From NCBI RefSeq assembly GCF_027587175.1, contig NZ_JAPCID010000002.1, positions 1-64,000 on the forward strand: DNA of 64,000 nucleotides. Reading direction: 5' to 3'. The position numbers were made by a program, and so were the translations under genes. The stretch comes from Solirubrobacter deserti (lineage in GTDB: Bacteria > Actinomycetota > Thermoleophilia > Solirubrobacterales > Solirubrobacteraceae). The notes under the pieces were generated by a model, which was not told the origin of the DNA, made no database searches, and saw nothing but the letters and a program-made list of their open reading frames with translations. Positions 28,655 through 63,939 of the stretch are shown here, piece by piece (position 1 is the stretch's first letter; every line of letters starts with the position of its first letter).

Positions 28655-28938
28655 AGCCGGGTTCCCCGGACTGCGTGAAACGCCGAGCGTTCACGCACGG
28701 GCCATTCGCTCGGGCTCGGGCCGCCGGAGTGGGTCGCAAGCGCTTGTGGAGGGCCGCCTGGCACGCGAGCGTTCACTAAGGCCCCCAGGAGGCGACTGAG
28801 TGAACCCTCGCGTGGCGTGACCGGAATCGTTGGTCAGTTCAGGCCCCATAGGGGCCCGAACTGACCACTCACCGCCGGGGGCTAGCAAGTAGCTCTGCGC
28901 ACACGCGCGAGCGTTTGCGCAGTCCGGGGAACCCGGCT
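28655..28938. repeat. 21-bp perfect inverted repeat bracketing a palindrome-rich intergenic stretch
   Basis: The 487-base gap between the EAL and lipoprotein genes has no convincing gene. A 21-base arm at 28655-28675 (AGCCGGGTTCCCCGGACTGC plus G) is the exact reverse complement of 28918-28938. Nested inside are GCGTGAA/TTCACGC (28673-28679 / 28690-28696), an imperfect GCGAGCGTTCACT / AGTGAACCCTCGC pair around 28766-28813, and the hairpin at 28831-28867. Together these look like a mobile or amplified intergenic repeat rather than a terminator alone. Confidence 0.55.
28831..28867. terminator. 17-bp-arm hairpin in the intergenic repeat region
   Basis: TGGTCAGTTCAGGCCCC (28831-28847) pairs with GGGGCCCGAACTGACCA (28851-28867) with one A-C mismatch and a 3-base loop. 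It would terminate transcripts from either side, or be part of the repeat element. Confidence 0.5.
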
Positions 28939-36276: not shown

Positions 36277-36768
36277 ATGGACTTCGCGATCCTCGGTCCG
36301 CTGCGGGTCGTGGGGCCGGACGGCGAGATCGAGCTCGGCGCGGGAGCGGAGCTCGAGCGCCTGACCGCCGAGCACCCGTACCGCGAGCGCTTCCACGCGC
36401 AGCTGATGCTTGCGCTCTACCGCGCCGGCCGCCAGGCCGACGCGCTCGACGCCTACCGCCGCGCCCGCCACGCGCTCGTGGAGGACCTCGGGCTGGACCC
36501 CGGCCCGGACCTCCAGCGCCTCGAAGCCCGGATCCTCGCCCACGACGTAAGCCTCACCGCTCGCTCACAGAAGGGGTCTGACCCTTCATCCTCGCCCGCG
36601 CCGGCGGCCGACACCCCGCCATTGCCGCTGCCGGCGACGCCGCTGCTCGGGCGCGAGGAGCACCTGGAGACGGCGGAGGCGCTGCTGGAGGACCCGGACG
36701 TGCGGCTGCTCCCGTCACCGGGCCGGGCGGCACCGGCAGCATCGGCCGGGGCGGCAAAGTCTCAGTAA
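36277..36768 (+). pseudogene. decayed SARP/BTAD-ATPase regulator
   Basis: The frame starts MDFAILGPLRVVGPDGEIEL, a perfect SARP N-terminus, but then jumps directly to the C-terminal part of BTAD (ERLTAEHPYRERFHAQLMLA.., LYRAGRQADALDAYRRARHALVEDLGLDPGPDLQRLEARIL). Most of the winged helix and the first BTAD helices (about 130-180 residues by family comparison) are missing. After TPLLGREEHLETAEALLEDPDVRL the ATPase P-loop appears only in another frame (VTGPGGTGS), showing a frameshift, and everything further is lost. A palindrome element (36570-36587) sits in the linker. Non-functional as a DNA-binding protein. Confidence 0.8.
36570..36587. repeat. REP-like palindrome, degenerate copy, in SARP pseudogene
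   Basis: GAAGGG-GTCTGA-CCCTTC; the core GGGGTCTGACCC matches the element at 61331-61373. It is translated in frame as QKGSDP. Confidence 0.6.
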
Positions 36769-54761: not shown

Positions 54762-55082
54762 ATGACCACGATCGCTGAAGAAGTCGAGGCGTGGCCCGGC
54801 GTGCACGCCGAGCACGGCTCGCGGGGCGAGTACGCCTTCAAGGTGGGCGCGCGCGAGATCGGGCACGTGCACGGTGACCGCGTGCTGCACATCGGCTTCC
54901 CGAAGGCCGTCTGGCATGAGCTCCACGACGCCGGCCGGATCGACTACCACCCCGTCTTCCCGAACAAGCCGGGGTTCGGCTCGCGTGACCTACGCAGCGA
55001 GGACGACGTGCGCGACGCGATCGAGCTGCTGCGCCTCAACTACGACCGCGTGATCGAGCGCTACGGGCTCCCCACCCCGTGA
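54762..55082 (+). CDS. luciferase-family/DUF5519 protein
   Basis: 106 residues from the ATG at 54762 (an ATG at 54753 lies inside the hairpin). TTIAEEVEAWPGVHAEHGSRGEYAFKVGAREIGHVHGDRVLHIGFPKAVWHELHDAGRI, then VFPNKPGFGSRDLRSEDDVRDAIELLRLNYDRV. This is the short domain labelled DUF5519 in actinobacteria, sometimes called 'luciferase family' without any shown light reaction. Function unknown. It overlaps the following quinone-oxidoreductase gene by 4 bases. Confidence 0.82.
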   Translation: MTTIAEEVEAWPGVHAEHGSRGEYAFKVGAREIGHVHGDRVLHIGFPKAVWHELHDAGRIDYHPVFPNKPGFGSRDLRSEDDVRDAIELLRLNYDRVIERYGLPTP

Positions 55083-55945
55083 GGGCCGTCTGGCTGCGCG
55101 CGTTCGGCCCGCCTTCGGTGCTCGAGGCGGGTGAGGCGCCGGAGCCCACGAACCTAAAGAGGGACAGTCCCTCTTTAGGTTTGATCAAGGTCGAGTTCGC
55201 GAACGTCACGTTCGTCGAGACGCAGGTCCGAGCCGGCCGCGGCCCGTTCCCGGTGCAGCTCCCCATGATCCCCGGGAACGGCGTCGGCGGCCGGCTGGAG
55301 GGGCGACGCGTGGTCGCTTCGCTCAACGGCCGCGGCGGCTACGCCGAGCGCGCCGTCCCGGGTGAGCTCTTCGACGTGCCGGACGAGCTCCCGCTCGATC
55401 ACGCGGTCGCGCTGCTCGCCGACGGCCGCACCGCGACGCTGCTCACCGACGCGGCGGCGATCCAGCCCGGTGAGCGGGTGCTCGTCCTGGCCGCGGCGGG
55501 AGGCGTCGGCACGCTGCTCGTCCAGCTCGCGCGGCGGGCGGGCGCGACGGTGGTCGGGGCCGCGAGCGAGTCCAAGCACGACGTCGTCGAGCGGTTGGGC
55601 GGCGCGCCCAGGCGCTATGACGACCTGCCGGCCGCCGATGTGGTGTTCGACGGCGTCGGCGGCGCCGCGGCCCGCGCGGCCTTCCAAGCGCTCTCCCCCG
55701 GCGGCCGCATCCTCTCCTACGGCCTCGCCAGCGGCGCCTGGGCGGACATCACGCCCGAGCAGGCGGCCGCACGGGACGTCACGCTCGTCAAGACCGGCCG
55801 CCCCGAGCGCCACCACACCGAGCGCGCGCTGACCGCCGGCCTGAAGCCGATCATCGGCCAGCGCTTCGAGCTCGAGCAGGCCGCCGCCGCGCACGCCGCG
55901 ATCGAGGCGCGCGCGACGGTCGGCAAGACCCTGCTCGTGCTCTAG
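55079..55945 (+). CDS. quinone-oxidoreductase-like MDR protein (zinc-independent alcohol dehydrogenase family), palindrome insert
   Basis: 288 residues. N-terminal GroES-like domain, short for the family (MRAVWLRAFGPPSVLEAGEAPEP then IKVEFANVTFVETQVRAG), and NADPH Rossmann fold with VLVLAAAGGVGTLLVQLARRAGATVVGAAS. No zinc ligands. A 31-base palindrome at 55151-55181 is translated in frame as NLKRDSPSLGL, replacing the usual 'PGPGEVLVR' turn, yet the frame stays open. It probably reduces quinones or enones; activity after the insertion is not known. Confidence 0.9.
   Translation: MRAVWLRAFGPPSVLEAGEAPEPTNLKRDSPSLGLIKVEFANVTFVETQVRAGRGPFPVQLPMIPGNGVGGRLEGRRVVASLNGRGGYAERAVPGELFDVPDELPLDHAVALLADGRTATLLTDAAAIQPGERVLVLAAAGGVGTLLVQLARRAGATVVGAASESKHDVVERLGGAPRRYDDLPAADVVFDGVGGAAARAAFQALSPGGRILSYGLASGAWADITPEQAAARDVTLVKTGRPERHHTERALTAGLKPIIGQRFELEQAAAAHAAIEARATVGKTLLVL
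55151..55181. repeat. REP-like palindrome inserted in frame in an oxidoreductase gene
   Basis: Arms AACCTAAAGAGGGA (55151-55164) and its exact reverse complement (55168-55181), loop CAG. The core GGGACAGTCCC belongs to the same style as the GGGGTCTGACCCC elements elsewhere in the window. Confidence 0.75.
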
Positions 55946-59551: not shown

Positions 59552-61043
59552 ACACGCCGTAGCCCACGTCGCGCAGCGGCGCGCCGGAGCACGCCCCGAG
59601 CGCGAGCCCGAGCACGTCGCGCGTGTCGCGCGGGTCGATCACGCCGTCGTCCCACAGCCGTGCGGTCGCGTAGTACGGGTGGCCCTGCTCCTCGTACTGC
59701 TCGCGCAGCGACGCGCCGACCTCCGGCTGGCCGACGGTCTCCATCACGGTCGCGGCCTGCTGGCCGCCCATCACCGAGATGCGCGCGTTCGGCCACATGA
59801 ACAGGAAGCGCGGCGAGTACGCGCGCCCGCACATGCCGTAGTTGCCGGCGCCGAACGACCCGCCGACGATCACGGTGAGCTTGGGCACGCGCGCGCAGCT
59901 GACCGCCGTGACCATCTTCGCCCCGTGCTTGGCGATGCCGCCCGCCTCGTAGTCCTTGCCGACCATGAACCCGCTGATGTTCTGCAGGAACACGAGCGGG
60001 ATGCGGCGGCGATCGCAGAGCTCGATGAAGTGGGCGCCCTTGAGCGCGGACTCGCTGAACAGGATCCCGTTGTTGGCCAGGATGCCGACCGGGTGGCCGT
60101 GGATATGAGCGAAGCCGGTGACGAGCGTCGGCCCGTACAGCGCCTTGAACTCGTGGAAGTGCGAGCCGTCTACCAGCCGCGCGATCAGCTCGTGCGGGTC
60201 GTAGGGCTTGCGGACGTCGGCGGGCACGACGTCGAAGATCGAGTCCGCGTCGTGGTGTGGCGGCTCGACCGCGATCCGCTCCCAGGCGCGGGTCGGCTTC
60301 GGGAGCGTGGCGACGATGTCGCGGACGATCGCCAGCGCGTGCGCGTCGTCGTCGGCGAGGTGGTCGGTGACGCCGGACGTGCGCGAGTGCAGGTCGCCGC
60401 CGCCCAGCTCCTCCGCGGTGACCTCCTCGCCCGTCGCGGCCTTCACCAGCGGCGGGCCGCCGAGGAAGATCGTGCCCTGCTCGCGGACGATCACGCACTC
60501 GTCGCTCATCGCGGGCACGTACGCGCCGCCCGCCGTGCACGAGCCGAGCACCGCGGCGATCTGCGGGATGCCCTTCTCGGACATCGTCGCCTGGTTGAAG
60601 AAGATCCGGCCGAAGTGTTCGCGGTCGGGGAAGACCTCGTCCTGCAGCGGCAGGAACGCCCCGCCCGAGTCGACCAGGTAGATGCACGGCAAGAGGTTGT
60701 GCAGCGCCACTTCCTGCGCGCGCAGGTGCTTCTTGACCGTCATCGGGTAGTAGGTGCCGCCCTTGACCGTCGCGTCGTTGGCGACGATCACGCACTCGCG
60801 GCCCTGCACCCGCCCGACCCCGGTGACGAGCCCCGCGCCGGGCGCGTCCCCGTCGTACATGCCGTGCGCGGCGAGCGGGCTCAACTCCAGGAACGGTGCG
60901 CCGTGGTCGAGCAGCCGGTCCACGCGCTCGCGCGGGAGCAGCTTGCCCCGGCTGGTGTGCCGTGCGCGGGCCTTCTCCCCGCCGCCCAGCCGCACGCGCT
61001 CGAGCTGCGCGTTCAGGTCGGCGACCAGCTCCGCGTGCGTCAT
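59541..61043 (-). CDS. acyl-CoA (methylcrotonyl-type) carboxylase, carboxyltransferase beta subunit
   Basis: 500 residues, a little shorter than the usual ~535. Two crotonase-like halves: [61 protein letters not shown], then [83 protein letters not shown]. The GAHFI and [19 protein letters not shown] motifs match 3-methylcrotonyl- and geranyl-CoA carboxylases rather than propionyl-CoA carboxylase. It overlaps the biotin carboxylase gene by 4 bases and completes the leucine-type operon. Confidence 0.95.
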
Positions 61044-62803
61044 GCGACCACCGCCACGATCTCGTCCCGCCCCACCTTGTCCCCCACCTTCACCTTCAGC
61101 TCGGTCACCGTGCCGTCAGATGGAGCGGTGAGCGAGAGCTCCATCTTCATCGACTCCAGCACCACCACGGGCTCGCCGGCCTTGACCTCGTCGCCCACCG
61201 CCCGCGGCGTGAGCAGCACCGACCCGGGCATCGGCGCCCGCAGCTCCCCGTCGCCCGCGACGTGGTGCAAGTCCTCCGCGCTCGGCTCGCTGACCCGCCA
61301 CGTCCACCCATCGACCGCCACCCACGGACCCGAACACAACCTTAAGGGGTCTGACCCCTTTAGGTTGTGTTCGATAGAGATCGGGGCGCCGCCGTTGACC
61401 GAGAGCGTCCAGTAGGACGGGGCGCGCGCGCCGCCGAGGCGCCAGCCGTCCACGCGCTGCCACGGGTCGTCGCCGGCGCGGCGCAGTTGTGCGGAAGCCC
61501 AGGCTGCGGCGGCCTCCTCGTCGGTGAGCGGCGGCTCCGGCGGGTCAAGGCGGCCGATCAGGCCCGTGTCCATCTCCCCCGCGCGCACGTCGTCGCGCGC
61601 AAGCAGCGAGCGCAGAAAGCCGACGTTGGTCTCCAGGCCGAGGATCGCGGTGTTGGAGAGCGCACGGTCCAGGCGCGCGAGGGCGGTGCGGCGATCCGGG
61701 CCGTGCGCGATGACCTTGGCGATCATCGAGTCGTAGTCCGTGCCGACCACGCTCCCGGTCTCGACCGCCGCGTCCACGCGCACGCCGGACGGGTACCGGG
61801 CGAGCAGCACGGGACCGGCGGACGGGAAGAAGCGCAGGTCCTCGGCGTTCACGCGGGCCTCGATGGCGTGGCCGGTCATTTCCACCTGGACGTCCAGCGG
61901 CTCACCCGCCGCCACGCGCAGCTGCAGCTCGACCAGGTCCAGGCCCGTCACCAGCTCCGTAACCGGGTGCTCGACCTGCAGGCGCGCGTTCATCTCCAGG
62001 AAGAAGTGCTGCGACGGATCGTCTGCGTCGGCGATGAACTCGACCGTCCCCGCGCCGACGTAGCCCGCGGCCTGCGCCAGCGCCACCGCCTCGCGGCCGA
62101 AGACCTCCCTCAGCGCCGCGTCCACGACCGGCGACGGCGACTCCTCGATCACCTTCTGGTGGCGCCGCTGGAGCGTGCACTCGCGCTCGCCGAGCGAGAT
62201 CACGGTGCCGTGCGTGTCGCCGATCACCTGCACCTCGATGTGCCGGGCGCGCGGGAGGAAGCGCTCGAGGAAGACGCGGTCGTCCCCGAAGCCCGCGGCG
62301 GCCTCGCGGCTCGCCGCCGCCATCGCGTCCGCCAGGTCCTCCGGACGCTCGACGACCCGCATGCCGCGCCCGCCGCCGCCCGCCGCGGCCTTGACCAGCA
62401 CCGGGTACTCCGCCGTCTCCGGGGTGTACGTGGGGACGACCGGCACGCCCGCAACCTCCGCGGCCGCCTTCGCGCGCACCTTGTCCCCCATGAGCTCGAT
62501 CGCGTCCGCCGACGGCCCGATGAACACGACGCCCATCTCCTCGCACGCACGCGCGAACGCCGGGTTCTCGCTCAGGAACCCGTAGCCGGGATGGACCGCG
62601 TCGCAGCGCGCGGCGACGACCATGATCTCGTCGATGCTCAAGTAGGACGAGACGAGCTCGGCGGCGTCGGCCTCACGCACGTGCGGCGCGTCGCGATCTG
62701 CCTCGGTGTAGATCGCCATGGACCGGATGCCGAGCCCGTGCAGCGTCCGCAGGACCCGGCGCGCGATCTCGCCGCGGTTGGCGACGAGCACGGAGTCGAA
62801 CAC
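61040..62803 (-). CDS. biotin carboxylase fused to biotin carrier (methylcrotonyl-CoA carboxylase alpha-type), palindrome insert
   Basis: 587 residues from the GTG at 62803, two bases after the dehydrogenase stop; a longer open frame upstream is spurious. Biotin carboxylase (~1-440): [85 protein letters not shown]. The C-terminal carrier domain has [18 protein letters not shown] (biotinyl-Lys). A 43-base palindrome (61331-61373) is translated in frame as [15 protein letters not shown] within the linker between the two domains. It carboxylates biotin for the next subunit. Confidence 0.95.
61331..61373. repeat. REP-like palindrome inserted in the biotin carboxylase linker
   Basis: Arms 61331-61349 (CGAACACAACCTTAAGGGG) and 61355-61373 are reverse complements with one mismatch. 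The loop TCTGA can close further (GGGGTC-T-GACCCC). Same family as 36570-36587. Confidence 0.75.
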
Positions 62804-62805
62804 GG

Positions 62806-63939
62806 CTAGGCCCCGAGCGCCCGCGCGATCACCATCTGCTGCACCTCGTCGGTGCCCTCGCCGATGGTGAGGATCTTCGCGTCCCGGTACATGCGGCAGA
62901 CCGGGTACTCCTCGATGTAGCCGTAGCCACCGTGGATCTGCACGGCCTCCTCGGCGCAGCGTACCGCCAGCCGGCCCGTCTTGAGCTTCGCCTGCGCGGC
63001 CGTGAGCGTGAAGTTGCGGCCCTGGTCCTTGAGCCGCGCGGCCTTGTAGACGAGCAGCCGCGCCGCCTCGATCTCGGTCGCCATGTCGGCGAGCTTGGCC
63101 TGGATGGCCTGGAACTTGGAGATCGGCTTGCCGAACGCGCGCCGCTCCTTCGCGTAGGCCAGCGCCTGGTCGAGCGCGCCCTGCGCGAGGCCGACGCCCA
63201 TCGCCGCCACGCCGATGCGCCCGATGTCCAGCACGTGCAGGAACTGCTTGAAGCCGGCGCCGCGCGGGCCGAGCAGGTTCTCCTCCGGCACCACGCAGTC
63301 CTCGAACGTCAGCGGCCGCGTGTCCGACGCGTTCCAGCCCATCTTGCGGTACGGCTCGCCCTGGAAGTAGCCCGGCGTGCCGTTCGGGACGATCAGGTTG
63401 GAGATCTCGTCCTCGCCGGTGCGCGCCGTGATGCACACCACGCCGGAGATGTCCGTGCCCGCGTTGGTGATGAACTGCTTGGCGCCGTTGATCGTCCAGC
63501 CGTCCTCGTTCAGCGAGGCGCGCGTGCGCACGTTGCCCGCGTCCGACCCCGCTTCGGGCTCGGTCAGCCCGAACGCGCCCAGGACCTCGCCGCTCGTCAG
63601 CTTCGGCAGCCACTCGGCCTTCTGCTCCTCGGAGCCGAACAGGTAGATCGGCTGCGTCCCGAGTGACGTGTGGGCGCAGAGCGTGATCGCCACCGACGAG
63701 TCCACACGCGTGAGCTCCTCGACCGCGATCGCGTAGGCCAGCGAGTCCGCCCCCGCCCCGCCGTACTCCTCCGGGAACGGGATGCCCATCAGCCCGAGCT
63801 CCCCGAGCTGCTTGACGATCGCGTACGGGAACGCCTTCGTGCGGTCGAGCTCCTCCGCCACCGGAGCGACCTCCTGCTCGGCGAAGTCGCGCACCGTGCG
63901 CCGGATCAGCTCGTGGTCGTCGGGGAGATCGAAGTTCAT
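62806..63939 (-). CDS. acyl-CoA dehydrogenase (isovaleryl/short-branched-chain type)
   Basis: 377 residues from the ATG at 63939 (a TTG at 63945 would add 2). FADH-dependent fold: VRDFAEQEVAPVAEELDRTKAFPY, GLMGIPFPEEYGGAGADSLAYAIAVEELTRVDSSVAITLCAHTSLGTQPIYLFGSEEQK, GAFGLTEPEAGSDAGNVRTRA, VQIHGGYGYIEEYPVCRMYRDAKILTIGEGTDEVQQMVIARAL (catalytic Glu in GEGTDE). Upstream of the two carboxylase subunits this is the order of leucine/isovalerate degradation operons. The missing enoyl-CoA hydratase and HMG-CoA lyase genes are not in the window. Confidence 0.94.
   Translation of the reverse strand: MNFDLPDDHELIRRTVRDFAEQEVAPVAEELDRTKAFPYAIVKQLGELGLMGIPFPEEYGGAGADSLAYAIAVEELTRVDSSVAITLCAHTSLGTQPIYLFGSEEQKAEWLPKLTSGEVLGAFGLTEPEAGSDAGNVRTRASLNEDGWTINGAKQFITNAGTDISGVVCITARTGEDEISNLIVPNGTPGYFQGEPYRKMGWNASDTRPLTFEDCVVPEENLLGPRGAGFKQFLHVLDIGRIGVAAMGVGLAQGALDQALAYAKERRAFGKPISKFQAIQAKLADMATEIEAARLLVYKAARLKDQGRNFTLTAAQAKLKTGRLAVRCAEEAVQIHGGYGYIEEYPVCRMYRDAKILTIGEGTDEVQQMVIARALGA

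What the first reader, a model, noticed from the sequence alone, without database searches (positions are those of the whole stretch)
55151..55181. REP-like palindrome inserted in frame in an intact quinone-oxidoreductase gene
A 14-bp-arm perfect palindrome with core GGGACAGTCCC replaces the turn after the first strand of an otherwise normal MDR protein. Its 31 bases, together with flanking bases, keep the frame open (NLKRDSPSLGL), so the gene appears to tolerate a mobile palindrome inside coding sequence. The style matches short palindromes (GGGGTCAGACCCC / GGGACAGTCCC) known to be spread by REP-associated tyrosine transposases in many bacteria.
Basis: partly seen in the sequence, partly recalled or inferred. 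Interest (0 to 1): 0.6.

Follow-up and report, generated by a model that had tools for sequence, protein, structure and literature searches.

The report
In-frame mobile palindrome in Solirubrobacter gene
A short hairpin-forming DNA repeat, spread by a REP-type transposase of the same genome, sits in frame inside an intact oxidoreductase gene, as related repeats do in many genes of soil bacteria of the genus Solirubrobacter; such inserts are a known kind, but here the same spot in a gene can hold a different repeat type in each species.

Summary
Bases 55151-55181 form a perfect palindrome (15-bp arms, one central A), the only one with arms of 12 bp or more in the window. The genome (Solirubrobacter sp.) has 28 exact 25-mer copies and about 55 close copies; the reversed control has 0. 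It lies in frame in an intact, syntenic quinone-oxidoreductase (MDR) gene. One congener has a copy at the same place, two have a copy at a second place in that gene, and one has neither. Most RAYT (Y1) genes found in the genus are flanked by inverted palindromes, and palindrome type follows RAYT clade. So this is a RAYT-linked repeat of the TIRtron/TIRYT type, not a GTAG/CGTC REP. Intragenic REPs are already published, so the kind is known. At least 26 family-1 copies in four species lie in frame in coding sequence, in all four open frames. The unusual part: old in-gene sites are shared between species yet carry each species' own palindrome family (four families at one phosphotransferase site), and core third positions are conserved where flanking synonymous sites have diverged. 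In-situ replacement by the cognate RAYT system is the likeliest reading, but target preference and hairpin selection are not excluded.

The parts
55151..55181 (.). family-1 palindrome, arms 55151-55165 and 55167-55181, central A at 55166
   Evidence: 28 exact 25-mer copies genome-wide
55079..55945 (+). host gene: MDR-type quinone oxidoreductase-like protein, 288 aa, GTG start
   Evidence: syntenic orthologues in G001, G003, G004, G005
55619..55640 (+). second site, empty here: the equivalent place in the orthologues carries a family-1 palindrome in G004 and G001 and a family-3-like palindrome in G003
61331..61373 (-). family-2 palindrome (core GGGGTCTGACCCC), in frame in the acyl-CoA carboxylase alpha-subunit gene
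61040..63613 (-). host ORF of the family-2 copy: biotin carboxylase domains plus biotinyl domain; the true start is uncertain
36572..36586 (+). shortened family-2 copy AGGGGTCTGACCCTT in a BTAD-regulator ORF (36277-36768), read as QKGSDPS

Best explanation
The palindrome is a non-autonomous hairpin repeat, multiplied in trans by a RAYT-like HUH/Y1 transposase. Two copies of that transposase gene in this genome are themselves framed by the same palindrome. It entered the 5' part of an MDR oxidoreductase gene at a turn that tolerates extra residues. It persists there because two of the three frames on either strand are free of stop codons and because only events that kept the frame survived (the net insert is 21 nt here, not 31). 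Shown: copy number, cognate flanking of the RAYT genes, in-frame coding position, empty and filled orthologues. Inferred: mobilisation by cutting of single-stranded hairpins at the replication fork, loss of a few target bases at insertion, near-neutrality for the protein.
For: 28 exact and 55 near copies, control 0. Y1_Tnp genes C30 and C86 are flanked by family 1 and C38 by family 2. In relatives the same holds: G003 C4 and G004 C236 with family 1, G004 C802 with family 2, G001 with family 3, G003 C149 with family 5, G005 C5a with family 4. RAYT clades match palindrome families. G002 has no RAYT hit and no family-1 palindrome. NCBIfam REP_Tyr_transpos matches at 64 bits. The MDR gene is empty at this site in G001, G004 and G005, with synteny. 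A species-specific insert in a LytS-like kinase gene is absent from four relatives (+42 to +45 nt). Twenty-six in-gene family-1 copies in four species use all four open frames.
Against: No transposition was observed. The only second genome of this species is identical at all 40 loci compared, so there is no within-species polymorphism. The NCBIfam match is below its curated cut-off (64 against 80 bits), and there is no PDB sequence match for the RAYT. One RAYT (G005 C5b) has no palindrome beside it within 1.5 kb. The codon-based classifier did not itself flag the MDR copy, because only about 70 nt of gene precede it; that case rests on the orthologues.
Confidence: 0.88

Rival explanations
1. 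The palindrome is kept by selection as a functional element of the gene, such as an mRNA hairpin or a protein-binding site controlling the oxidoreductase.
For: The core is unchanged between G000 and G003 although four-fold sites in the flanks are only 54% identical. Four of five species have a palindrome somewhere in this gene.
Against: The position differs between species and G005 has none. The same element occurs in dozens of unrelated genes and between genes. Families differ in core sequence.
Confidence: 0.06
2. The encoded peptide (KRDSPSL) is a selected protein motif and the DNA palindrome is secondary.
For: The peptide occurs in several proteins.
Against: In-gene copies are read in all four open frames, giving KRDSPSL, KEGQSLF, KEGLSLF or KRDCPSL. 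Synonymous positions do not vary. Close orthologues lack it.
Confidence: 0.02
3. A chance palindrome or assembly artefact.
For: None.
Against: Genome-wide family with control 0; the same place is filled in an independent species; a second assembly is identical.
Confidence: 0.01

Closest known systems
TIRtron / TIRYT repeats (Di Nocera et al. 2013, PMC3733652; largely HUH subclass 2.1 in PMC6006769)
   Same: Tyrosine transposase gene framed by inverted, partly self-complementary repeats with motif GGGGWSAS (family 2: GGGGTCAG); dispersed family, single or paired, no GTAG tag.
   Different: Family 1 is usually AGGGACAG, one base off the motif; many copies in coding sequence; the genus Solirubrobacter is not named in that paper.
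REP/REPIN-RAYT systems (Nunvar 2010 PMC2817692, Nunvar 2013 PMC3686654, Bertels and Rainey 2011 PMC3116915)
   Same: Cognate RAYT beside its own repeat family; repeats without their own gene; different repeats beside related RAYTs ('orthoswitch').
   Different: No GTAG/CGTC foot; outer stem TAAA...TTTA shared by all families here; in Nunvar's model old copies stay and decay after an orthoswitch, whereas here homologous sites carry different families.
Intragenic REPs of Opitutus terrae and others (PMC3733652)
   Same: REPs singly or as dimers inside ORFs, adding residues.
   Different: Here the same gene sites are followed across five species, showing sites both shared and species-specific.
Rickettsia palindromic elements (RPE)
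   Same: Palindromes in frame in many genes; PMC3733652 equates RPE-4 and RPE-6 with intragenic CGTC repeats.
   Different: Here a cognate transposase is present and flanked by the repeat; no sequence relation was tested.

Membership tests
TIRtron / TIRYT repeat | Y1 tyrosine transposase gene flanked by inverted repeats of the family | tested here: met
   9 of 10 RAYT genes in five species have family palindromes beside them; G005 C5b has none within 1.5 kb
TIRtron / TIRYT repeat | GGGGWSAS motif in the repeat | tested here: inconclusive
   Family 2 (GGGGTCAG) fits exactly; family 1 is usually AGGGACAG, with some GGGGACAG variants
TIRtron / TIRYT repeat | C-terminal domain of subclass 2.1 proteins (PMC6006769) | not tested
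   The RAYTs here are about 180-200 aa; their C-termini were not examined against that domain
GTAG / CGTC REP | Unpaired GTAG or CGTC tetranucleotide at one end of the stem | tested here: not met
   Printed flanks of 65 copies show no such conserved tag
RAYT protein family (NCBIfam NF047646) | Score above curated cut-off (80 bits) | tested here: not met
   64 bits, E = 1.3e-17 over the full profile
Y1 transposase family (Pfam PF01797) | Score above gathering cut-off (23 bits); HxH motif | tested here: met
   32.7-52.2 bits; NHVHL/NHMHL/NHIHL motif in all ten sequences
REPIN | Two REPs in inverted orientation acting as one unit | tested here: inconclusive
   Many pairs 75-78 nt apart, but mostly in the same orientation as judged by the central A
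Rickettsia palindromic element | Sequence or length match to an RPE family | not tested
   Only the behaviour was compared

The most novel reading that the evidence does not exclude
Old in-gene palindrome sites are inherited across species while the palindrome at the site is replaced in situ by the family that is active in that lineage, through the cognate RAYT. At one APH-like phosphotransferase site G000 and G004 carry family 1, G001 family 3, G003 family 5 and G005 family-4-like palindromes, always between ..LH/LN and F.RL. At a MocR linker G000 and G005 both hold a pair 25 codons apart, of different families. RAYT systems would then home into existing repeats, not only insert at new places.
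Probability: 0.5. Interest if true: 0.72.

Novelty: new member of a known kind. Interest (0 to 1): 0.48.

Why it matters
How REP-type repeats spread and stay intact is still an open question: insertion sites are hard to align between genomes because most repeats lie in fast-evolving intergenic DNA. Coding sites with clear protein alignments on both sides give exact site homology across species. Here they show empty, filled and family-switched states of one site, so 'new insertion plus decay' can be tested against 'replacement in place'. They also show which protein loops and linkers take up extra residues.

Tried and rejected
(1) The window-only count of GGGACAGTCCC is uninformative. (2) The second genome of the species (G061) was searched for insertion polymorphism but proved identical at all 40 loci. 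(3) The inverted pair on C44, 632 bp apart, looked like a decayed RAYT unit; the DNA between encodes part of an amidase and has no RAYT similarity. (4) An AlphaFold model of the host protein, with a 3-sequence alignment, reached only mean pLDDT 46.8, and residues 1-116 are unreliable; it was not used. (6) Decay of family 1 in G001, which lacks a family-1 RAYT (2 of 6 copies with perfect inner arms against 43 of 53 in G004), is suggestive, but the numbers are small and the search patterns differed between genomes.

Full report
What is there. Bases 55151-55181 are AACCTAAAGAGGGAC-A-GTCCCTCTTTAGGTT. It is the only perfect palindrome with arms of 12 bp or more in the window and folds well above shuffles. 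It lies 24 codons into a 288-aa gene (55079-55945) that matches MDR quinone oxidoreductases. In the PDB alignment to a quinone oxidoreductase (1yb5) the insert falls in the variable stretch between the first and second strand regions (the strand assignment is from general knowledge of the MDR fold).

Genome-wide copies. The 25-mer occurs 28 times exactly and 55 times within 3 mismatches; the reversed control gives 0. The window belongs to a Solirubrobacter genome: G061, identical at all 40 compared loci, corresponds to Solirubrobacter sp. CPCC 204708, G004 to S. taibaiensis and G005 to S. soli (contig lengths and coordinates agree). A second family, GGGGTCTGACCCC, has about 20 places.

Transposase. 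The genome has three Y1_Tnp genes. C30 and C86 are framed by family-1 palindromes and C38 by family 2. In four other species the pattern repeats with each species' own palindromes. A tree puts the family-1 RAYTs together, the family-2 RAYTs together (support 0.95) and the family-3/5 RAYTs together (1.00). G002 has neither a RAYT hit nor family 1.

In-gene copies. A codon-usage test (trained on 92 ORFs; both 180-nt flanks best in the same frame, no stop) finds 26 family-1 copies in frame inside genes of four species. All four open frames are used (9 in +1, 9 in +2, 6 in -2, 2 in -1), so no particular peptide is favoured strongly. Hosts include an S9 peptidase, MocR-type regulators (linker between GntR and aminotransferase domains), an APH-like phosphotransferase, a LytS-like kinase, a CydDC-like ABC transporter, an amidase, and EamA and MFS transporters (names without a Pfam hit are from reading the sequence). 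Families 2, 3 and 5 do the same, for example family 2 in the ispE-like gene of G001 and in the carboxylase gene of this window.

The MDR gene across species. The gene and its two upstream neighbours are syntenic in G001, G003, G004 and G005. Site 1 (the finding) is filled in G000 and G003 and empty in G001, G004 and G005. The net gain, counted against G004/G005, is 21 nt in G000 and 12 nt in G003, less than the 31-nt palindrome. Site 2, about 155 codons further on, holds family 1 in G004 and G001 (read as ELKEGQSLF and ELEEGQSLF), a family-3-like palindrome (AACTTAAACGTCCTGGACGTTCAAGTT) in G003, and nothing in G000 or G005. A clean case of species-specific insertion is the LytS-like gene: only G000 carries the insert, +45 nt relative to three relatives and +42 nt relative to G001, joined there to a GCGACATGTGTCGC palindrome.

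Shared sites with different families. At the APH-like site all five species have a palindrome or a clear relic between ..LH/LN and F.RL: family 1 in G000 (two copies) and G004, family 3 in G001, family 5 in G003, family-4-like in G005. The census shows these are the species' own families: G001 has 75 TAAAN{11,15}TTTA places (control 1), mostly CGTCCTGGACG; G005 has 153 (control 3), mostly GGGGTCAGGCCCC, with a minority of the GGAGCAGGCC type seen at the shared sites; G003's TAAAGGACCTGGGGCTTTA recurs elsewhere in G003. At shared family-1 sites the core is mostly identical between species while four-fold sites in the flanks are 54-67% identical. For seven third positions the chance is 0.014-0.061 per pair; the product over four independent sites (S9, MocR, APH, MDR site 1) is about 4e-7 if core positions evolved like the flanks. 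The pairs between MDR site 1 and site 2 are not homologous and are not used.

Reading. The finding is a RAYT-linked mobile palindrome of the TIRtron type. Intragenic REPs have been described (PMC3733652), so this is a new member of a known kind. The sharing of sites with change of family is best explained by replacement in place. The published model expects old copies to stay and decay after an 'orthoswitch' (PMC3686654), though that paper allows partial replacement. Repeated insertion at favoured sites and selection for any hairpin are not excluded. No paper reporting family switching at homologous coding sites was found in six literature searches of an open-access library, which is not proof of absence.

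Limits. No expression or transposition data; no within-species variation; most relatives are draft assemblies; the in-gene classifier is conservative and uses no annotation; the structure model was too poor to use.

Noticed in passing
window 61331-61373: Family-2 palindrome with 21-bp arms (95% complementary), in frame on the minus strand in an acyl-CoA carboxylase alpha-subunit gene, read as [15 protein letters not shown] upstream of the biotinyl domain.
   Followed up: partly
window 36572-36586; L281, L282 (G003): Linker after the BTAD domain of SARP/AfsR-like regulators carries a family-2 remnant here and family-5 or family-3+5 palindromes in related G003 genes, so this linker is a repeated landing place.
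   Followed up: partly
L224, L009, L018, L057 (G000): Some family-1 copies are joined to a second short palindrome GCGACANNTGTCGC with a variable centre; origin unknown.
   Followed up: no
G000 pairs, e.g. C58:41981/42056, C62:21534/21612, C38:63344/63419: Many palindromes come in pairs 75-78 nt apart; pairs inside genes (MocR, APH-like) have spacings divisible by three, while several others are 76 nt apart.
   Followed up: partly
L250 (G003 C4), L251 (G001), L253 (G003 C149): The RAYT reading frame runs into its own 3' palindrome, which encodes residues near the C-terminus (for example KRPGRLS, KGPGPLS).
   Followed up: no
window 28831-28867: Inverted repeat TGGTCAGTTCAGGCCCC / GGGGCCCGAACTGACCA (17 bp, 94%) of an unrelated kind.
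   Followed up: no
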